DNA of 64,000 nucleotides. Origin: Halarcobacter mediterraneus. GTDB lineage: Bacteria; Campylobacterota; Campylobacteria; Campylobacterales; Arcobacteraceae. A model generated the notes under the pieces. That model worked only from the letters and a program-made list of their open reading frames with translations, did no database searches and was not told the DNA's origin. Below are positions 16,583 to 25,944 of the stretch, piece by piece. Each line of letters starts with the position of its first letter. The stretch's first letter is position 1. The stretch lies in the NCBI RefSeq assembly GCF_004116625.1, contig NZ_NXIE01000001.1, positions 186,001-250,000 on the forward strand, given 5' to 3'. The position numbers were made by a program, and so were the translations under genes.

Positions 16583-18118
16583 ATGAAACATGTACCAATA
16601 GTTGTATTAGATTTTGGTAGTCAATATACACAAATTATTGCAAGAAAACTTAGAGAAGCTGGTGTTTACTCAGAAATTGTACCATTTAGTGAAAGCATAG
16701 AAGATATTAAAGCTAGAACTCCAAAAGGTATTATTCTTTCTGGTGGACCAGCATCTGTTTATGCTGAAGATGCTTATCATCCTGATAAAGAGGTATTTAA
16801 TTTAGGGCTTCCTGTTTTAGGTATTTGTTATGGTATGCAACTTATCTCTCAATATTTTGGTGGCTCGGTTATTCCTGCTGATCATCATGAATATGGTAAA
16901 GCAAAACTTACATTTGAAAAGACAAGCGATATTTTCAAAGACACTACAGATGGTCAAACTGTTTGGATGTCTCATGGAGATAAAGTTGATAAATTAGCCG
17001 ATGGTTTTGAAGTTATTGGAACAAGTGAAAACTCTCCTTTTGCCGCAATTGCAAATATGGATAAAAGAATTTATGCTTTTCAATTTCACCCAGAAGTTTA
17101 CCATTCAGAGCAAGGGTCAAAAATCCTTAAAAACTTCGCAAAATATATTTGTGATTGTGAATCAACTTGGAATATGGGTTCATTTGCTAAAGAACAAATT
17201 ACTAAAATCCAAGAGCAAGTTGGAAACAAAAAAGTTCTTTGTGCTGTATCAGGAGGAGTTGATTCTTCTGTAGTTGCTACACTTTTAGCTGAAGCTATTG
17301 GAGATCAACTTATTCCTGTATTTGTAGACAATGGTCTTCTTAGAGCAAATGAAAGAGAACAAGTAGAAGCTATGTTTAAAAGTAGAGGAGTTAACTTAAT
17401 AACTGTTGATGCAAGTGAAACTTTCCTTTCAAGATTAGCAGGTATTACAGACCCTGAAAGAAAAAGAAAAATCATCGGTGAAACTTTTATTGAAGTATTT
17501 GATGAAGAAGCAAAAAAACATGATGGTATAGAGTTTTTAGCTCAAGGTACACTTTATACAGATGTTATTGAATCAGTTTCTGTAAAAGGACCTTCAAAAA
17601 CAATTAAATCTCATCATAATGTTGGTGGACTTCCAGACTGGATGACATTTGAGTTAATAGAGCCTTTACGAGAAATTTTTAAAGATGAAGTTAGACTTTT
17701 AGGATTAGAACTTGGACTTCCAAAGGATATGATTGGAAGACATCCTTTCCCTGGACCAGGACTTGCTATTAGAGTTATGGGAGATGTAAATAAACCTGAT
17801 TTAGAGTTACTAAGAAAAGCTGATGTTATTATGCTAGATGTTCTTCATGCAACAGGATTATATGATAAAACATGGCAAGCCTTTACAGTACTTCTAAATG
17901 TAAAATCAGTTGGAGTAATGGGTGATAATAGAACTTATGATAACACTGTATGTGTAAGAATAGTTGAAGCAACTGATGGTATGACAGCTACATTTGCACA
18001 TATTCCACATGATATCTTAGAAACAATTTCAAGAAGAATTATCAATGAAGTTGATGGGATTAATAGAGTTGTTTATGATATTTCTTCAAAACCACCAGCA
18101 ACAATTGAGTGGGAATAA
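16583..18118 (+). CDS. guaA: GMP synthase (glutamine-hydrolysing)
   Basis: This enzyme is full length at 511 residues. The glutamine amidotransferase domain has the nucleophile C82 in GICYGMQ and the partners H169 and E171 in FHPEV. The ATP pyrophosphatase P-loop SGGVDSS is at 223-229. The C-terminal dimer domain ends KPPATIEWE, the standard ending. It converts XMP, glutamine and ATP to GMP. It stands alone, with its own promoter and a hairpin overlapping the stop codon. Confidence 0.97.
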
Positions 18119-18135
18119 AAGCGATAGCTTTTATT
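18114..18135 (+). terminator. Hairpin at the end of guaA
   Basis: The nine-base arms AATAAAAGC (18114-18122) and GCTTTTATT (18127-18135) are perfect, with a GATA loop, and include the stop codon. The stem is A/T-rich and ends in T's, so it can stop transcription. It is also the left part of a larger nested repeat. Confidence 0.6.
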
Positions 18136-18220
18136 CATCTTGCACTAGATTTAGGTTCGAAGTACTTTTAGTACATCTTCTCCTAAATCTAGCACAATCT
18201 AAACAAAATCTATCACTTTT
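18117..18220. repeat. Nested inverted-repeat element of about 104 bp after guaA
   Basis: The outer arms AAAAGCGATAG (18117-18127) and CTATCACTTTT (18210-18220) match at 10 of 11 positions, or 11 with a G-T pair. The inner arms CTAGATTTAGG (18145-18155) and CCTAAATCTAG (18182-18192) are perfect, with a further small stem GAAG/CTTC inside. No reading frame is present. The rest of the gap to the next gene (18221-18358) is AT-rich with nothing recognisable apart from a probable promoter. Confidence 0.55.
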
Positions 18221-18358
18221 CACAGTTTTTATTTTAAAAATCTAATTTTATCTTTCATTATTTTAATAGTTTTTAACTATAAATCACTTCTTAAAAAATG
18301 TATATTTACTAAAATTTCAATATAATAACTTTACATTTAATAAGGATATATAATAATT

Positions 18359-18790
18359 ATGAAAAATGACAATTTAAAAGAACTTGTGATTGAATATTTT
18401 AGGAAAGTAGATAATGGTGACTCTAGTTATCTTGAGTTATTCTCAGATGATGTTGATTTTTTCTTCCCTAAATTTGGACAAAAAAAAGGAAAAAAGGCAT
18501 TAATTGAATTTGGTAATAGAATAGGAAGTTCTTTAACAAGCATATGGCATGATATAGATGGCTTTCAAATAACAACTGCTGAAAATAAGGTAATTGTTGA
18601 AGGACAAGAAGGAGGAGTGATGAGTGATGGAACTTCTTGGCCTGATAATAATATATCAATAGGTCGTTTTTGTAGTGTATTTGAGTTTACTGGAAAATTT
18701 ATTAGTCGTATGTATGTATATGTAGATCCTGATTTCCCTAGCCGAGATTTAGAAAGAATTTCAGTATTGTCAGAGGGAAATAACACATAA
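18359..18790 (+). CDS. SnoaL-like (NTF2-fold) protein
   Basis: This 143-residue protein follows the SnoaL/NTF2 pattern: N-terminal helix LKELVIEYFRKVDNGD, then YLELFSDDVDFFFP, a central helix GKKALIEFGNRIG, and the strands GRFCSVFEFTGKFISRMYVYVDPDF. Members are small cone-shaped enzymes or binding proteins with varied ligands, so no specific role can be given. It has its own upstream region and stands at the left side of the accessory stretch. Its base composition resembles the host. Confidence 0.7.
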   Translation: MKNDNLKELVIEYFRKVDNGDSSYLELFSDDVDFFFPKFGQKKGKKALIEFGNRIGSSLTSIWHDIDGFQITTAENKVIVEGQEGGVMSDGTSWPDNNISIGRFCSVFEFTGKFISRMYVYVDPDFPSRDLERISVLSEGNNT

Positions 18791-18919
18791 TAAACTATTC
18801 AAAAAAGATTTCTGTAGGTTATATTTTCAGCTAGACATATTAGTTGGTTTTATATATAATTTATTATTGTTAAATAGTTAGATGTCAGTTAAGCACTCAT
18901 GTTTATTAAAGGAGATTAA

Positions 18920-19558
18920 ATGGATATAAATAACATCATAACTTTTATAGCGGTAGCGACCCTGTTGGTTATTTCACCTGGCCCGAATGGTTTCCTTATT
19001 GCTAAAACAGTTCCAGTGTCTGGACAAAAAGCGGGCTTCGCTAATATTTGGGGATTCGTTGGTGCTTTTTATGTGCATGGAACATTATCTATATTTGGTA
19101 TATCAGTACTTCTTGTTCAATCTTCTCAAGCGTTCTTTATCTTTAAATCTTTAGGTGCAGCTTATTTAGTTTGGATTGGTATCAAATCACTTATTGCTGC
19201 TTTCAAAGTTGATAGTATTAAAGTATCAGATTTAGCTCAGAAAACTACGAAGTCTATTTCGATGCGCACAGCATTTTTAGAGGGCTTCTTAACAAACGTG
19301 CTCAACCCCAAAGTGTCAATGTTCTATTTGGCGGCCTTTCCGCAATTTATATCCATAAACGAGAGTTCAATGAATGCATATGCATTGGTAACTGCTCACG
19401 TTGTGGTGAACTTTGTGTGGTTTTCAACAATGGTATTGATGTTGTCACGTATAAAAAGTGCTACTAACAACGTTCGATTTAGAAGGTGGTTAAGCTCCAT
19501 CACTGGTATTGTATTTATTGGTTTTGGGGCAAAGTTGGCATTAATGAAAAGTAGTTAA
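18920..19558 (+). CDS. LysE/RhtB-family exporter (cassette gene)
   Basis: This 212-residue membrane protein has about six hydrophobic segments. The N-terminal TLLVISPGPNGFLIAKT is the LysE/RhtB signature, and TNVLNPKVSMFYLAAFPQF is the second conserved block. The family exports amino acids and related metabolites; the substrate is unknown. Codon choice differs from the neighbours, with runs such as GCGGGCTTCGC and more G/C in third positions, pointing to recent transfer. The stop codon lies inside an attC-like R'' box, as in compact integron cassettes. Shine-Dalgarno AAAGGAG precedes the ATG. Confidence 0.88.
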   Translation: MDINNIITFIAVATLLVISPGPNGFLIAKTVPVSGQKAGFANIWGFVGAFYVHGTLSIFGISVLLVQSSQAFFIFKSLGAAYLVWIGIKSLIAAFKVDSIKVSDLAQKTTKSISMRTAFLEGFLTNVLNPKVSMFYLAAFPQFISINESSMNAYALVTAHVVVNFVWFSTMVLMLSRIKSATNNVRFRRWLSSITGIVFIGFGAKLALMKSS

Positions 19559-19621
19559 CAAACCAATTAATATGACCTCAAGACGCTTCGCTTCTTTTGG
19601 TAGCTTATTGGGGCGTTAGGT
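19553..19621 (+). other. attC-like recombination site 1
   Basis: R'' is AGTTAAC (19553-19559) and R' is GTTAGGT (19615-19621). The L'' and L' boxes pair as CCAATTAA (19563-19570) and TTATTGG (19605-19611), with one extra base on the L'' side, the asymmetry expected of attC. The centre AAGACGC/GCTTCTT forms a stem with a TTC loop. Total length is 69 bp, in the normal attC range. R'' departs from RYYYAAC at one base. Confidence 0.65.
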
Positions 19622-19640
19622 TAAAAAATAAAGGAAAGTT

Positions 19641-19922
19641 ATGAGTATTACAAGAATAAATGAATTCCAATCAGCAGAAGGAAAAGAAGATGAACTATTT
19701 GATTTTTTAAAATCTTTAATCCCTTACATTACTTCATCTGATGGATGTCTAATGTGTGAAGTATTAAAAAGTGATGAATTTCCAAATAAGTTTATAGTAA
19801 TAGAAAAATGGGACTCGAAAGAATCTCACATAAAATCTATTGAAGCTTTTCCAAAAGATCAAATGCAAAATGCAATGTCACTCTTTGGTGATACACCAAA
19901 AGGTGGGTATCACCACACCTAA
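19641..19922 (+). CDS. Antibiotic biosynthesis monooxygenase (ABM) domain protein (cassette gene)
   Basis: This single ABM domain has 93 residues: strand SITRINEFQSAEGKEDEL, helix FDFLKSLIPYI, the conserved small turn SSDGCLMCEVLKS, strand KFIVIEKWDSKESHIKSIE, and a short tail. Such ferredoxin-like dimers oxidise quinols or aromatic compounds, or degrade haem; the substrate is unknown. The gene begins 20 bp after attC 1 and its stop TAA is inside the R'' box of attC 2, so it fills one cassette. A second ABM protein lies at 24755-25030. Confidence 0.8.
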   Translation: MSITRINEFQSAEGKEDELFDFLKSLIPYITSSDGCLMCEVLKSDEFPNKFIVIEKWDSKESHIKSIEAFPKDQMQNAMSLFGDTPKGGYHHT

Positions 19923-19985
19923 CAAATCATAGGAGAGAAATATTTGACCCTGTGGCTCAAATATTTCTCAACTCAAACGTTATCC
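19917..19985 (+). other. attC-like recombination site 2
   Basis: R'' ACCTAAC (19917-19923) fits RYYYAAC exactly. R' is GTTATCC (19979-19985). A perfect 13-bp stem, GAGAAATATTTGA (19935-19947) and TCAAATATTTCTC (19957-19969), fills the centre. The right end CTCAAACGTTAT is nearly the same as in site 3, and both sites begin CTAACAAA. Length is 69 bp. Confidence 0.7.
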
Positions 19986-20020
19986 AAAAACAGGAAATAA
20001 ACTTTTACAAAGTTTTATGA

Positions 20021-20026
20021 TATAAT
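20021..20026 (+). promoter_or_regulatory. -10 box of the toxin-antitoxin cassette
   Basis: TATAAT at 20021-20026 within ATGATATAATACAC, 33 bp before the antitoxin start, so this cassette probably carries its own promoter. Toxin-antitoxin cassettes usually do. A Shine-Dalgarno AAAGGAG follows. Confidence 0.6.
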
Positions 20027-20058
20027 ACACTTATACATCACTACATAAAGGAGTATTT

Positions 20059-20307
20059 ATGCATAGATTAAATTTAACAATTGATGAAGAATTATATGAA
20101 CAAGTAAGAGCAGTTAGTTTTATAGAAAAGAAATCAATTTCACAAATGATTAGAGAAAGTCTTAGTGAATATATTGCAAAAAATTCAAAAACTAAAGAAC
20201 AAGCTAATTTAATACTAAAAGCAGATGATGAAAAAGAGATTTTATCAATATTAGCAAATGATGAATTTACCTCAAATGAAGATTTTAAAAATAAATTTAA
20301 CTTATGA
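20059..20307 (+). CDS. RelB/RHH-type antitoxin (cassette gene)
   Basis: This 82-residue antitoxin has an N-terminal ribbon-helix-helix: strand HRLNLTIDEELYEQVRA and helix KKSISQMIRESLSEYIA. An acidic, probably flexible C-terminal part follows (ADDEKEILSILANDEF) and should wrap the toxin. It binds its own promoter in related systems. It overlaps the toxin gene by 4 bp (ATGA), typical coupling. Confidence 0.82.
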   Translation: MHRLNLTIDEELYEQVRAVSFIEKKSISQMIRESLSEYIAKNSKTKEQANLILKADDEKEILSILANDEFTSNEDFKNKFNL

Positions 20308-20543
20308 TTATTTCATATTCTAAGACATTTGAAAAGAAGTTTTCAAAATATGATAGAAAACTTCAAGAAAAAATATTTAATGCCATTCAAAACTTGCCAG
20401 ATGGAGATGTTAAAAGATTAACAGGTAATGAGATACCTCCTATTTATAGAATCAGAGTTTCAAAGTACAGAATACTTTTTCACATGAATGAGGAAGAGAT
20501 TCAAATATTAAAAGTTGATAGCAGAGGTGATATTTACAAGTAG
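20304..20543 (+). CDS. RelE/ParE-family toxin (cassette gene)
   Basis: This 79-residue toxin follows the RelE/ParE fold: strand IISYSKTFEKKFSKYD, helix KLQEKIFNAIQNLPDGDV, strands VKRLTGNEIPPIYRIRVSKYRILFHMNEEEIQILKVDSRGDIYK. The YRIRVSKYRILF stretch is the basic core strand of RelE ribonucleases, and the terminal RGDIYK matches the family ending. It should cleave mRNA on the ribosome or poison gyrase; which one is not resolved. Toxin-antitoxin pairs are common integron cassettes, where they stabilise the array. Confidence 0.82.
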   Translation: MIISYSKTFEKKFSKYDRKLQEKIFNAIQNLPDGDVKRLTGNEIPPIYRIRVSKYRILFHMNEEEIQILKVDSRGDIYK

Positions 20544-20549
20544 TAAATT

Positions 20550-20603
20550 GTCTAACAAAACTTTGCAGTGAACGCACAGCGTCACTGAAGTCAAACGTTA
20601 TAT
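20550..20603 (+). other. attC-like recombination site 3
   Basis: R'' GTCTAAC (20550-20556) fits RYYYAAC exactly; R' is GTTATAT (20597-20603). The central stem pairs CAGTGA with TCACTG and CGC with GCG around an ACA loop, with one bulged A (20572). The outer ACTT/AAGT pair has two extra bases (20564-20565) on the left arm, like attC extrahelical bases. The end GTCAAACGTTAT matches site 2. Confidence 0.7.
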
Positions 20604-20621
20604 TATAAAGATAAACAACAA

Positions 20622-21437
20622 ATGAACTATCAAACATTTAAACCACATAAAGATTTAGAATCTATTGTTAAGTTTTATTGGACTTTAGAAGTGCCTTTTG
20701 ATTCAAAAAATAAAAAGCAAAAAATTTTACCAGATGGCTGTATAGAAATGACTTTTAATTTTGGAGACAAAATTAAAAGATATACTTCTAAAGAAGACTT
20801 TATACTTCATCCAAATGCAATGGTAATGGGGCAGAGAACAAAATCATATTATATTTTGCCTATTGGAGATGTAGATACTTTTGCTATATGTTTTTATCCT
20901 CTTGGTTTTGCAAATTTTATACAAACACTTCTTAAAGACTTGGTCGATAAAGAAACACCAATATCACAACTTTTTGAAAAAACACAAGCTGAAGAATTAG
21001 AACAACACATGGCACATGCAAAAGATACCCAAGAAAGAATCAATATTATTGAAACTTTTTTATTAAAAAAACTTAATTTAAAAAATACAATAAATAATAT
21101 TGTAAAATCAACAGTTGATACTTTATTAAAGACTAATGGAAAAACTCCAATAAATGTCATCTTGAAAGATAATATTTCAAAGAGAAGACAGATTGAAAGA
21201 TACTTTAGAAAACAAATTGGCATAAGTCCGAAGCAATTGAGCAAGGCAATTCGATTGCAAGCAACTTTACAATTACTATTCAATAAAAAATCTGAAACTT
21301 TGACAGACATTGCATATGAGAGTGAATATTTTGATCAAAGTCACTTTGTAAAAGATTTCAAAGAGCTAACTGGGATTACACCCAAAGACCTTTTAAACAA
21401 TGAACATATGGCTCTAGCTTCACTTTTTTATAAATAA
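20622..21437 (+). CDS. AraC-family transcriptional regulator
   Basis: This 271-residue regulator has an N-terminal ligand-type domain (DUF6597-like) with ILPDGCIEMTFNFGD and FYPLGFANF, and a C-terminal double helix-turn-helix from about residue 170: SKRRQIERYFRKQIGISPKQLSKAIRL and LTDIAYESEYFDQSHFVKDFKELTGITPKD. The first helix block and the SPKQ and TPKD phrases are typical of AraC regulators. It starts only 19 bp after attC 3, as a cassette gene would, but no attC is seen after it. It may regulate the VOC protein downstream. Confidence 0.85.
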   Translation: MNYQTFKPHKDLESIVKFYWTLEVPFDSKNKKQKILPDGCIEMTFNFGDKIKRYTSKEDFILHPNAMVMGQRTKSYYILPIGDVDTFAICFYPLGFANFIQTLLKDLVDKETPISQLFEKTQAEELEQHMAHAKDTQERINIIETFLLKKLNLKNTINNIVKSTVDTLLKTNGKTPINVILKDNISKRRQIERYFRKQIGISPKQLSKAIRLQATLQLLFNKKSETLTDIAYESEYFDQSHFVKDFKELTGITPKDLLNNEHMALASLFYK

Positions 21438-21531
21438 ATCTGAAGTGTCGCATTTCTACTATTTTAAATCTTATTATTAAGTTATAGTTTAAATCTCTAT
21501 ATGAGTCAAAATAAATTTAAAAGGAGAAGTG

Positions 21532-21900
21532 ATGAAAAGTTATATTTCAATGTTTGAAATTCCAGCTACTGATATTTCACGAGCAATTAATTTTTATCAA
21601 ACATTATTAGAGATTAAAATTGAAAAAATGGATGTTGAAGGTATGCAAATGGGAATATTACCTTATGAAGAACAAATGGTAACAGGAGTAATTATAAAAG
21701 CAGAAGGATATGAACCATCAGCAAACGGAGTAACAATCTACTTAAATGTAGGTGAAAATCTACAATTATTTCTTGACAAAGTAGAGAATAATGGTGGGAA
21801 AATCATAGTACCTAAAACAGCTCATGCAGATGAGAATGGCTACTTTGCAATATTCCTTGATTCTGAAGGAAACAAGATAGCTTTAAATTCACCTAGTTAA
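21532..21900 (+). CDS. VOC/glyoxalase-family protein
   Basis: This protein has about 122 residues with two beta-alpha-beta-beta-beta units of the vicinal oxygen chelate fold: YISMFEIPATDISRAINFYQTLL opens the first, VTIYLNVGENLQLFLDKVENNGGKIIVPKT the second, and GYFAIFLDSEGNKIALNSP is the standard end. The ligand is unknown. Shine-Dalgarno AGGAG at 21522-21526 favours ATG 21532 over the preceding GTG. The gene lies 94 bp after the AraC gene, so they may work together. Confidence 0.82.
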   Translation: MKSYISMFEIPATDISRAINFYQTLLEIKIEKMDVEGMQMGILPYEEQMVTGVIIKAEGYEPSANGVTIYLNVGENLQLFLDKVENNGGKIIVPKTAHADENGYFAIFLDSEGNKIALNSPS

Positions 21901-21963
21901 AGATAAAAAGTGCTATGATTTAAAAAACTAGTTGCTATAACGTTATAAAAAGGATTAAATATA

Positions 21964-22287
21964 ATGAAAAGAATAATATTGGTTATTTTACTATCAGTAT
22001 TTTTATTTGCTGAAAACAATTTACCAGAAGGGGCAATTAAAAGAGGTTCTTTATCAAATACAAAATTAATTAACGATGCTAAATTAGGAGTAATCTCAAA
22101 AGTTGCACAAATGGGATGTAAGAAACCTGAATCATTTAAGCCTTTTGTTTTGGCTATGCCAATGGGTAAAGTAGGTTCAAGAGTATGGAAAGAATTATGG
22201 ATAGTGCAGGGGTGTAATTCTAAATACCCAGTTGAAATTATCTTTAGTGAAGATGGATTAGGTGCTGCAAATTGGTCAATTAATTAA
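21964..22287 (+). CDS. Secreted protein of unknown function
   Basis: This 107-residue protein starts with a clear signal peptide (MKRIILVILLSVFLFAENN, cleavage near residue 16-17). The mature part has two cysteines (MGCKK and VQGCNSK) that could form a disulfide, and a final strand YPVEIIFSEDGLGAANWSIN. I do not recognise the family. It is probably periplasmic. An ankyrin protein that is also exported follows in the same direction. Confidence 0.6.
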   Translation: MKRIILVILLSVFLFAENNLPEGAIKRGSLSNTKLINDAKLGVISKVAQMGCKKPESFKPFVLAMPMGKVGSRVWKELWIVQGCNSKYPVEIIFSEDGLGAANWSIN

Positions 22288-22388
22288 TTATTATAGAGTT
22301 AAAAGATAATTTTTGTTATGATTTAAAATCACTCTTTATATAATTATTTAGTTGTATGAGTATCTAATTTATTCATTAAAGGAAAAAA

Positions 22389-23879
22389 ATGAAAAAAATC
22401 TTATTTATCTTCTTATTATTTTCAAATATCATTTTTGCAAACTCAAATATTACTCCAGAAACGATCATGTATGGAAATTGCCTTAATAGTTATGAAAAAA
22501 AATATATGAAAAAATCAAATAATAAAGCTTTTGCATATGCAATGCAAACTAATGGTAAAAGTTCTTGTGGTTGGGGAAGTAGATATAAAACTATAGAAGA
22601 AGCTAGACAAATGGCTTTAAAATATTGTAGTAAAAGAAAATTAAATGTTGAGTGTAAAGTTATTGATGAAAATGGAAAACTTATTGTAGAAAAAGATGAC
22701 TTTATACCAATTGTTCCAAAATCAAATAGATATTTATCAAAAGATGAATATTCTAAATATCTAGAAAATGGAAAAGAAATTATAAATAGTAGTAAATGTC
22801 TTTATTCTTTTAAAATTTATCTTAGAGGTAAAGAACATCAGTCTTTTTATTTTGCTAGGGATAGTAAAGGAAATGAAGTATGTGGAAAGAGTAAAAATAA
22901 ATTTTCTATCCAAGAAGCAAAAGAAACTGCCTTTGCTCAATGTAAAAAAGCTTTAAAGAAAGAAAATATAAATGCAATATGTAAACCTTATGCAGTTAAT
23001 TTTAAGATTGTAGGAAAAGCAGAAGATTTTGGATATGTTAAAGGTAAAGCTGATTATTTAGATGCTATTTATAGAGGGAAAATAAATAAGATTAAAAGAT
23101 ATATTTCTGAAAATGCTGATATAAATGCTATTGCAAAAGATGGTAGTTCTCCTATTTTTGTTGCTGCTGCAAAAGGGGATGAAGAGTTTTTCTTATCTTT
23201 AATTGAAAAAAAAGCAAATCCTAAACAAATAATGAATGATGGTAGTAATTTATTAATAGCAGCTGTATTAGGTGAAAATCCAAATATTATAAGATATTTA
23301 TTGTCAAAAGGCTTTGATATTAATACACAAAATGATAAAGGATATACTCCCTTGCATATTGCTTTTAAAAAGTTTGATACTTATCTTATTGAAATTTTAA
23401 TGCAAGAAGGAGCTGATGCTACTATTAAAGACAAAAAAGGTGTAAGTGGATATGATTTAGCCAAAAAATGGAAAATTGACCTTGATGTTCTAAAGAAGAT
23501 AGATATAAATCGAAAAAAAGACAATTGTAATCAAGTATTTTATGCTGCTAAAAATGGTGATGTTTTAGGTTTGAAAAAATTAGCAAAATTAAAAGCTAAT
23601 TTTAAAAAATCATGCGATTTTGATTCAATTACACTTGACTATTCAAAAGATGATAAGAGAATAACTCGAATACTTCTTGATAATGGAATAGATATAAATG
23701 TTAAAAATAATAGAGGTGAAACAGCTTTAATGAATGCAAAAACTGCTAAAAAAGTAAAAATTCTTTTGGATTTAGGGGCAGATAAAATGATTAAAGATAA
23801 AAATGGTAAAACAGCTTATGAGCGTGTTAAAAATGATAAGTATGTAAGTGAAGAGATTAAAGATTTACTTAAATATTAA
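22389..23879 (+). CDS. Exported ankyrin-repeat protein with Cys-containing N-terminal repeats
   Basis: The protein has 496 residues with a signal peptide (1-17). The N-terminal part holds two related units of about 85 residues, each with FAYAMQTNGKSSCGWG- or FYFARDSKGNEVCGKS-like strands followed by an Ala-rich helix with paired cysteines (ARQMALKYCSKRKLNVECKV; AKETAFAQCKKALKKE). From about residue 215 there are ankyrin repeats (DGSSPIFVAAAKGD, DKGYTPLHIAFKKFD, and a further set near 430-480). Ankyrin repeats bind proteins; the partner is unknown. It lies in the accessory region between secreted unknowns. Confidence 0.8.
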   Translation: MKKILFIFLLFSNIIFANSNITPETIMYGNCLNSYEKKYMKKSNNKAFAYAMQTNGKSSCGWGSRYKTIEEARQMALKYCSKRKLNVECKVIDENGKLIVEKDDFIPIVPKSNRYLSKDEYSKYLENGKEIINSSKCLYSFKIYLRGKEHQSFYFARDSKGNEVCGKSKNKFSIQEAKETAFAQCKKALKKENINAICKPYAVNFKIVGKAEDFGYVKGKADYLDAIYRGKINKIKRYISENADINAIAKDGSSPIFVAAAKGDEEFFLSLIEKKANPKQIMNDGSNLLIAAVLGENPNIIRYLLSKGFDINTQNDKGYTPLHIAFKKFDTYLIEILMQEGADATIKDKKGVSGYDLAKKWKIDLDVLKKIDINRKKDNCNQVFYAAKNGDVLGLKKLAKLKANFKKSCDFDSITLDYSKDDKRITRILLDNGIDINVKNNRGETALMNAKTAKKVKILLDLGADKMIKDKNGKTAYERVKNDKYVSEEIKDLLKY

Positions 23880-23910
23880 ATTTACTTTTTTCAAATGAAA
23901 AAGAAAGAAA

Positions 23911-24117
23911 GTGAGATATGATGTGAAAAAAGTTCTAATAGCAGGAGCTACAGGCTATTTAGGTGGATATGTAGCAAAAGGTTTAGAAAAAAATTTAAAA
24001 AATGGTTGGCGTCTTCCTACTTTTGATGAGTTAAGAACAATTCTTGATAGTAAGTGTGAAAAAAATACAATCAATTCTAAATTGTTTCCTGATATAAAAC
24101 TTTTATCTAATAGTTAA
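23911..24117 (+). pseudogene. Chimeric remnant: NAD-binding SDR start joined to a DUF1566 piece
   Basis: The frame of 68 codons joins two unrelated pieces. Residues 6-28 read VKKVLIAGATGYLGGYVAKG, the Rossmann start of an NmrA/epimerase-like SDR. Residues 29-63 read NGWRLPTFDELRTILD plus INSKLFPDI, which is the DUF1566 (Lcl) fold start. The join falls in an A-rich run near 23980-24000. Neither domain is complete, so this looks like a deletion fusion of two gene ends rather than a working protein. The GTG at 23923 is the likely original SDR start. Confidence 0.65.
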
Positions 24118-24119
24118 AA

Positions 24120-24743
24120 GTGAAAATGAATAGATTAATATATATCTTTTTTTTCTTTTTTTATACCACTATTTATGCAAACAGTGAATTATATGAATCT
24201 GATTTATATTATTTAGAGGAAAATGAAGTATTATTATACAAAGTTTTAAATTGGTGGAGCACCAAATCTCAAGAAAATAGTATTGAATTTTGTTTTAATA
24301 ATCTTAGAGTTAGAAGCAATAAAACTCTTAATTTAGATTATGATAGAAAAGCAAAAATATTGAAAATATATTTAAAAGAAGAGTTTGCTAGTTTGGTATC
24401 TATTTTTGAAAATAAGAGTACATATTTAAAAACTGATTATTTAAATAGAAGCTATTTTAAAAGTTTAAAACCAAAAAATATCAAAAGAATAGATATGATT
24501 AGTTTAAACAATATTAGTTTTAGTGAATATAAAAAGATAAAAAGTATGAAGAAAAATCTTGCTTTTGAACTTGAAGGAAAAATTGCAGGATTATTAGCTT
24601 ATACAGGACAAGTTTCTTTGCATAAAAGTGGAGATTTTTTAAGAACTTGTCCTAATAACTCAAAAGAAAAGTTTGATATCTCTTTTAAGCTTTTAAATAT
24701 AAAAACAAAAGAAATATTAGTTAAATACAATAAAAAAAATTAA
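24120..24743 (+). CDS. Exported protein of unknown function
   Basis: This 207-residue protein has a signal peptide rich in Phe and Tyr ending ...TTIYANS. The rest is mixed, with many Tyr, Lys and Asn and two Cys (FCFNN and RTCPNN). No family is recognised. The frame opens with GTG 24120; ATG 24126 is an equally possible start. It follows the chimeric pseudogene by 2 bp and precedes an ABM-type gene by 11 bp. Confidence 0.55.
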   Translation: MKMNRLIYIFFFFFYTTIYANSELYESDLYYLEENEVLLYKVLNWWSTKSQENSIEFCFNNLRVRSNKTLNLDYDRKAKILKIYLKEEFASLVSIFENKSTYLKTDYLNRSYFKSLKPKNIKRIDMISLNNISFSEYKKIKSMKKNLAFELEGKIAGLLAYTGQVSLHKSGDFLRTCPNNSKEKFDISFKLLNIKTKEILVKYNKKN

Positions 24744-24754
24744 TAAGGAAATTT

Positions 24755-25030
24755 ATGTCAAAAGTTATATTAAAAGGTTTTATTTTGGTTCCCCAATCAG
24801 AACTTGAATTAGTTAAAAAAGAGTTAATAACTCATAAAAACCTTACTTTGAAAGAGGAGGGTTGCATCACTTTTAGTGTTACAGAAAATATACACAACCC
24901 TCTTAGTTTCGAGGTTTATGAAGAGTTTGTTGATAAAGTTGCATTTGAAGAACATCAAAAAAGAGTTAAAGCTTCAAAATGGGGTAAAGTAACTGCAAAT
25001 GTAACACGCCACTATGAAATTATTGAATAA
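24755..25030 (+). CDS. YgiN-like ABM domain monooxygenase
   Basis: This 91-residue ABM domain opens with the strand VILKGFILVPQSELELVKKELITHKN, then EEGCITFSVTENIHNPLSFEVYEEFVDKVAFEEHQKRVKASKWGKV. The YEEFVDKVAFEEHQ phrase is the standard mid-domain of YgiN-like putative quinol monooxygenases. The final RHYEII strand completes the domain. The substrate is unknown. The sequence is not close to the cassette ABM protein at 19641-19922. Confidence 0.8.
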   Translation: MSKVILKGFILVPQSELELVKKELITHKNLTLKEEGCITFSVTENIHNPLSFEVYEEFVDKVAFEEHQKRVKASKWGKVTANVTRHYEIIE

Positions 25031-25377: not shown

Positions 25378-25944
25378 ATGTTTAATAATGATGATTATTG
25401 GGAAGAAGAGTTTAACCAATACAAATCAGAAAAGATGTATAAAATCTACTTTGATAATTGTACTTTTATTAAATGTGATTTTTCAAAAGCATTTATTGAC
25501 TCTTGTAAGTTTACAGAATGTATTTTTATAAATTGTGATTTATCTTTATCCATATTAAAATCATCTACTTTCAATGATGTTATCTTTAAAAACTCTAAAT
25601 TGATTGGTATTTCATGGAGTTCATGTGATGAACCTTTTGATGTAAGTTTTGATTCATGTAATATATCTCAAAACTCTTTTCATTTTTTAGACTTAAGAAA
25701 AATGGTATTTAAAAACTCTCTTATTAAAGATACTGGCTTTGAGGAGTGTAACTTAGAAAATTCTATTTTTGATAATTGTGACTTAGAACTGTCTTCTTTT
25801 ATAAATAACAGTTTAGTTAAAGCAAATTTTGAAACATCTAAAAACTACGTTATAGACCCTAAATCAAATGATTTAAAAGATGCAAGCTTTTCTTTACCTG
25901 AAGCACTTAGTTTTTTATCAGTACTTCCTATTAGAATTAAATAA
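25378..25944 (+). CDS. Pentapeptide-repeat protein
   Basis: The protein has 188 residues. From about residue 20 to 150 it is built of A(D/N)LXX-like pentads, here with many Cys and Phe: FDNCTFIKCDFSKAFIDSCK, FKNSKLIG, LENSIFDNCDLELSSF. These form a right-handed quadrilateral helix. Some members (Qnr, MfpA) mimic DNA and protect gyrase; nothing here proves that role. It starts 10 bp after the small lysine-rich gene, so the two may share a transcript. Confidence 0.8.
   Translation: MFNNDDYWEEEFNQYKSEKMYKIYFDNCTFIKCDFSKAFIDSCKFTECIFINCDLSLSILKSSTFNDVIFKNSKLIGISWSSCDEPFDVSFDSCNISQNSFHFLDLRKMVFKNSLIKDTGFEECNLENSIFDNCDLELSSFINNSLVKANFETSKNYVIDPKSNDLKDASFSLPEALSFLSVLPIRIK

What the first reader, a model, noticed from the sequence alone, without database searches (positions are those of the whole stretch)
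19553..20603. Integron-type cassette array (three attC-like sites, no integrase in view) in a Campylobacterota genome
Three attC-like sites, each 54-69 bp, follow three successive inserts: a LysE exporter, an ABM protein and a RelB/RelE pair. Each has a RYYYAAC-type R'' box, a GTT-start R' box and a hairpin between; sites 1 and 3 show the extra bases on one arm typical of attC. In cassettes 1 and 2 the stop codon is inside R''. Sites 2 and 3 share the right end TCAAACGTTAT and left CTAACAAA. LysE codon use differs from the host, and toxin-antitoxin cassettes with their own promoters are classic integron cargo. Together this fits a CALIN-type array, which would be unusual in this phylum as far as I know.
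Basis: partly seen in the sequence, partly recalled or inferred. Interest (0 to 1): 0.85.

Follow-up and report, generated by a model that had tools for sequence, protein, structure and literature searches.

The report
Decayed integron array downstream of guaA
This stretch is the leftover of a bacterial gene-capturing platform (an integron) that has lost its integrase gene but keeps its docking site, a likely promoter and three captured genes, one apparently imported from marine gammaproteobacteria; related bacteria show successive stages of the loss, and such platforms prove common in this phylum.

Summary
All three attC-like sites are present. A covariance model built only from attCs of other Campylobacterota integrons finds site 2 (E=1e-12) and site 3 (E=2e-7), and nothing else in the 64 kb below E=0.1. 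Site 1 is of a different, gammaproteobacterial type; its LysE gene has relatives in marine gammaproteobacteria that sit between attC sites.

The array is more than an isolated CALIN. Immediately before cassette 1 lies an attI site (18851-18876) with a likely promoter (TAGACA-17-TATAAT). Just after guaA lies a stump of the intI start. In congeners intI at this same guaA locus is intact (2 genomes), frameshifted, internally deleted, truncated to 120, 55 or about 30 codons, or gone. The window genome has no intact intI: a frameshifted copy lies beside guaB. So this is a guaA-linked chromosomal integron whose integrase eroded, leaving a frozen array.

The claim 'unusual in this phylum' fails: 34 of 397 sampled Campylobacterota genomes carry a full integron integrase, and 58 of 104 family genomes carry attCs. 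By-product: most genomes of the genus carry 2-8 attI-like sites but never more than one intact integrase.

The parts
16583..18118 (+). guaA, left core flank of the integron locus in the genus
   Evidence: present in all 16 genus genomes; attC arrays and/or intI follow it in most
18231..18342 (-). stump of the intI start (about 17 decayed codons, LKTIKIMKDKIRFLK against MAKKLLEIMRDRIRFKH) plus part of the intI-attI leader
   Evidence: 83% identity over 18238-18342 to the intI 5' end and leader of G396
18359..18790 (+). SnoaL-like gene lying between the intI stump and attI; no attC of its own
   Evidence: Pfam SnoaL_2 just under cut-off; 90% DNA identity to a gene directly after an attC in congener G401
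18832..18860 (+). putative cassette promoter Pc: TAGACA, 17 bp, TATAAT
   Evidence: sequence; the -10 is part of the motif shared by attI sites of the genus
18851..18876 (+). attI site; crossover point at the G of GTTAGAT, 18877
   Evidence: 3 mismatches to the attI motif of the genus at 18853-18880; best in 20 shuffled windows was 6
18878..19615 (+). cassette 1: LysE/RhtB-type exporter (ORF 18920-19558)
   Evidence: Pfam LysE; GC3 0.33 against 0.07-0.24 in neighbouring genes; closest relatives in marine gammaproteobacteria
19553..19621 (+). attC site 1, gammaproteobacterial type
19616..19979 (+). cassette 2: ABM-domain protein (ORF 19641-19922); cassette start GTTAGGT is the exact reverse complement of its R'' ACCTAAC
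   Evidence: Pfam ABM; no homologue at E<=1e-12 in 103 other family genomes
19917..19985 (+). attC site 2, Campylobacterota type
   Evidence: R1 E=1.1e-12; 94-95% identical to attCs in other families of the phylum, L107 and L112
19980..20597 (+). cassette 3: antitoxin (20059-20307) and ParE-like toxin (20304-20543)
   Evidence: 93-94% identical pair in a different array of congener G396
20550..20603 (+). attC site 3, short Campylobacterota type
   Evidence: R1 E=1.6e-7; similar site in L114
20622..21900 (+). AraC-family regulator and VOC protein after the last attC; possible cassette(s) that lost their attC
   Evidence: AraC gene has no match at E<=1e-60 in 103 other family genomes; cassette status inferred
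25378..25944 (+). right-hand gene shared with congeners; the variable region lies between guaA and it
   Evidence: 66-91% homologues downstream of guaA in several congeners

Best explanation
The window holds a relic of a sedentary chromosomal integron that stood immediately downstream of guaA. In its active state an integrase, transcribed away from the array, inserted circular cassettes at attI (G^TT at 18877) by recombination with folded single-stranded attC sites; the promoter inside attI transcribed the first cassettes. In this lineage intI was deleted down to its first codons, and a SnoaL-like gene now separates the stump from attI. The array (LysE, ABM, antitoxin/ParE) remains but is frozen: the only other intI of the genome, beside guaB, is frameshifted. 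Shown: sites, attI, stump, graded decay in congeners, foreign type of cassette 1, cassette copies at other loci. Inferred: that the promoter is active, that these sites were once recombined by IntI, and that the array is immobile now.
For: attC hits by an independent model. attI motif with G^TT exactly at the cassette 1 start. intI leader and stump after guaA. Decay series at the same locus: intact in G292 and G401; two frames in G399; internal deletion in G406; N-terminal 120 aa in G403, 55 aa in G400, about 30 aa in G402, a short upstream fragment in G396. attCs follow guaA on the same strand in most congeners, with different cassettes. Own genome: intI beside guaB broken into three frames, no full-length IntI. 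A GNAT cassette occurs twice in this genome and the homology starts exactly at the G^TT. ABM cassette start and its R'' are perfect complements. LysE relatives sit between attCs in Colwellia, Microbulbifer, Vibrio and Kangiella.
Against: Site 1 has a weak folding energy and is not found by R1. Cassettes 1 and 3 have only 5 of 7 complementary bases between cassette start and R''. The SnoaL gene between stump and attI is unexplained. The window attI is the most diverged of those compared. No strain-level comparison shows a cassette moving in this species.
Confidence: 0.92

Rival explanations
1. A CALIN created by off-target insertion of cassettes by an integrase elsewhere in the genome; no integron ever stood at guaA.
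For: No integrase within reach; other arrays exist in this genome at guaB and on contig 2.
Against: attI, a likely promoter and an intI stump are present, and congeners carry intact or partly decayed intI at exactly this place.
Confidence: 0.05
2. The stem-loops are intrinsic terminators or chance palindromes between ordinary genes.
For: Sites lie between genes and form hairpins; a crude box-and-stem scan gives similar scores in shuffled sequence.
Against: Specific model hits at 1e-12 and 1e-7, near-identity of site 2 to attCs in distant genera, G^TT boundaries, neighbouring attI.
Confidence: 0.01
3. The array is still alive: an integrase missed by the assembly, or one acquired by transfer, serves attI and the attCs in trans.
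For: attI and the attC boxes are still recognisable; the genus carries several attI-like loci per genome and sometimes one intact IntI.
Against: The genome is estimated 100% complete and holds no full-length IntI; the attI is diverged.
Confidence: 0.08

Closest known systems
Xanthomonas integrons downstream of ilvD (PMC12444791)
   Same: Ancestral chromosomal platform at a fixed housekeeping gene, intI inactivated by frameshifts, stops or deletions in most strains, array retained, further CALINs at other loci.
   Different: Here the anchor is guaA (with guaB as a second locus), another phylum, a distinct attC/attI family, and many extra arrays of the genus carry attI and leader sequence.
CALIN elements (IntegronFinder; PMC9024848)
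   Same: At least two attCs without an adjacent integrase.
   Different: A recognisable attI with a likely promoter and an intI stump remain, so the origin by integrase loss in place can be read off.
Integron elements reported in Sulfurovum and Sulfurimonas (PMC10295459, Table 1)
   Same: CALIN or In0 elements in Campylobacterota genomes.
   Different: Seen there only as table entries; no attI, locus conservation or decay series described in the passages read.
Marine gammaproteobacterial cassette arrays (Colwellia L132, Microbulbifer L140, Vibrio hepatarius L145, Kangiella L166)
   Same: LysE cassette with the stop codon inside R'' and a GCGTTR-type R' end.
   Different: Those attCs are mostly longer; the window LysE is about 70-80% identical in DNA to its nearest relatives, so the donor is not identified.

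Membership tests
Integron (complete) | functional integron integrase gene intI next to attI | tested here: not met
   only a stump of about 17 decayed codons near 18231-18275; no full-length IntI anywhere in the genome
Integron (complete) | attI site | tested here: met
   18851-18876, 3 mismatches to the genus motif; shuffles 6-8
Integron (complete) | cassette promoter Pc at attI | tested here: inconclusive
   TAGACA-17-TATAAT present by sequence; activity not testable here
CALIN | two or more attC sites without integrase nearby | tested here: met
   two sites by covariance model, a third by type-specific filter and homology
attC site | R''/R' and L''/L' boxes folding as one strand with unpaired spacers | tested here: met
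   boxes at all three; canonical bottom-strand fold for site 1, strong stem at site 2, modest at site 3
Gene cassette | homology between copies starts at G^TT and ends in attC | tested here: met
   met for the GNAT cassette of the same genome, which starts exactly at GTTATAT; for the window's toxin pair the match ends in R'' but its 5' end is blurred
Gene cassette | excision and insertion by IntI | not testable with these tools
   needs a recombination assay

The most novel reading that the evidence does not exclude
In this genus the integron is a distributed system: several dispersed attI-promoter-cassette platforms per genome, most without their own integrase, served in trans by at most one integrase; the window array is one such platform after the last integrase was lost. 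Support: 2-8 attI-like sites in each of 13 of 16 genomes (reversed-pattern control: 2 hits in all), an attC in 42 of 60 fetched stretches around such sites, and never more than one intact IntI. Repeated insertion followed by independent integrase loss would leave the same traces and is not excluded.
Probability: 0.3. Interest if true: 0.7.

Novelty: new member of a known kind. Interest (0 to 1): 0.5.

Why it matters
Integrons are studied mostly in gammaproteobacteria. Here a genus of another phylum shows graded loss of the integrase at one conserved locus while attI, a likely promoter and cassettes persist, a natural series for asking how and why integrases are lost. The array also mixes attC types of two phyla, which suggests that cassettes cross phylum borders. 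The several attI-like sites per genome make a direct test of integrase action in trans possible.

Tried and rejected
Rfam had no usable attC match at gathering or relaxed threshold. The home-made attC scan was not significant by itself. LysE copies downstream of guaA in G401 and G402 looked like the same cassette but show no attC at their ends and only 68-69% identity, so they are not counted as cassette relatives. A plasmid search for LysE gave nothing above 60% identity. A 76% match of the leader region to contig 3 at 212.8 kb showed no attI motif and was dropped as chance. SnoaL was considered as a cassette inserted at a secondary site; the boundary is not clean enough to say.

Full report
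1. Observation. The three sites are present at the stated coordinates, with the stated boxes, and the stop codons of LysE and ABM lie inside R''. To test them without circularity I collected attC-like sites from arrays next to full-length integrases in other Campylobacterota genomes, aligned 54 and built covariance model R1. R1 finds site 2 at E=1.1e-12 and site 3 at E=1.6e-7; the third-best hit of the 64 kb is E=0.14. E-values of this tool are rough. Site 2 is 94-95% identical to attCs of other families, L107 and L112. Site 1 is missed by R1. It has R'' AGTTAAC, an L-box pair CCAAT/ATTGG and R' GTTAGGT, its bottom strand takes the canonical shape, and a filter for gammaproteobacterial-type attCs finds it as the only match on both strands (0.087 expected per strand). 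That filter was designed after seeing the site, so it is support, not proof; the homology of the LysE cassette below is the stronger argument.

2. Surroundings. Window 18238-18342 is 83% identical to the integrase start and leader of congener G396; on the minus strand it reads LKTIKIMKDKIRFLK where G396 IntI begins MAKKLLEIMRDRIRFKH. Comparison of the regions between intI and the first cassette in 12 loci gives a common attI motif, TATATAATGTATnnTnAATAAATA|GTTA. The window has it at 18853-18880 with 3 mismatches; the best in each of 20 shuffled windows has 6 to 8. Its crossover G^TT at 18877 is where the LysE cassette starts by comparison with gammaproteobacterial relatives. The attI includes TATAAT, with TAGACA 17 bp upstream. 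A SnoaL-like gene lies between stump and attI; how it came there is open.

3. Relatives. guaA is in all 16 genus genomes. On its 3' side stands an intact, tail-to-tail intI in G292 and G401; G399 has it in two frames, G406 with an internal deletion, G403 as 120 N-terminal residues, G400 as 55, G402 as about 30, G396 as a short upstream fragment. attCs follow on the guaA strand in most of these genomes, with other cassettes than in the window. ABM and AraC have no comparable homologue in 103 other family genomes. The toxin pair occurs at 93-94% identity in a different array of G396. In the window's own genome a GNAT cassette is present beside guaB and on contig 2, and the homology of the two copies starts exactly at GTTATAT. 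The guaB copy sits at the attI of an integrase broken into three frames; contig 2 has a run of attCs with an attI but no intI.

4. Origin of cassette 1. LysE has higher third-position GC (0.33) than its neighbours. Its nearest relatives in GTDB species genomes are Alteromonas, Spongiibacteraceae, Marinomonas, Aliikangiella, Microbulbifer, Colwellia, Vibrio and others. In Colwellia L132, Microbulbifer L140, Vibrio hepatarius L145 and Kangiella L166 the gene is preceded and followed by attCs. Spongiibacteraceae L127 shares the left half of site 1, AACAAACCAATTAATnTGA. A gammaproteobacterial origin of the cassette is the simplest reading; the donor is not identified.

5. Mechanism. By established integron biology, IntI recombines the folded bottom strand of attC with double-stranded attI at G^TT, and a promoter at attI expresses the first cassettes. 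Everything needed except IntI can be recognised here. With no intact IntI in the genome the array should be immobile, while its first genes may still be transcribed. These last two points are inferred.

6. What is known. Integrons in Campylobacterota are listed in PMC8618304; CALIN/In0 elements of Sulfurovum and Sulfurimonas appear in Table 1 of PMC10295459. A closely parallel case, ancestral integrons downstream of ilvD with mostly inactivated intI, is described for Xanthomonas (PMC12444791). I found no paper in the held library describing the guaA/guaB platforms, but subscription journals are largely absent.

7. A wider pattern. The attI motif occurs 2-8 times per genome in 13 of 16 genus genomes; the same pattern read backwards occurs twice in all. 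Some hits with 3 mismatches are probably chance. Of 60 fetched stretches 42 hold at least one R1 attC; a few stretches overlap. Many keep leader sequence without intI. Yet only 4 of 16 genomes have a full-length IntI, one each. Either integrons inserted repeatedly and lost their integrases one by one, or attI platforms are copied within genomes and served in trans. L251, with a C-terminal intI stump as well as the leader, favours loss in place at that locus.

8. Verdict. As a kind it is known; the locus, the decay series and the mixed-phylum array are new details worth a specialist's look.

Noticed in passing
L109 (minus) 2196, 2756, 3644; L112 (minus) 3272; L115 (minus) 2372; L118 2196 and 8814; L108 4855; L110 (minus) 481; L111 443: A GC-rich unit of about 150 bp without obvious ORF, very similar in genomes of several Campylobacterota families and three times in one array, following other cassettes; it is built of nested palindromes (GATAACGGGGGCGCGGG ... 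CCCGCGCCCCCGTTA). Possibly an ORF-less cassette or a composite attC.
   Followed up: partly
window 18117-18220: A 104-bp imperfect inverted repeat directly after guaA, well conserved in several congeners between guaA and the integron; no Rfam match.
   Followed up: no
G000 contig 1, 773199-774990 (L049): Second integron remnant of the same genome, tail to tail with guaB: intI broken into three frames, attI, one GNAT cassette with attC, then what looks like a transposase fragment. An intact intI stands beside guaB in G203, another genus.
   Followed up: yes
G000 contig 2, 65354-73421 (L121): Third array of the same genome with at least four strong attC hits and an attI matching the motif exactly, no integrase.
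   Followed up: partly
G396 contig 1, 2651609-2655637 (L262-L264): Three attI-like sites about 2 kb apart in the same orientation, an odd tandem arrangement.
   Followed up: no
window 20622-25030: AraC regulator, VOC protein, a 107-aa protein, an ankyrin-repeat protein and a second ABM-like protein fill the variable region up to the shared gene at 25378; some may be old cassettes without attC.
   Followed up: no
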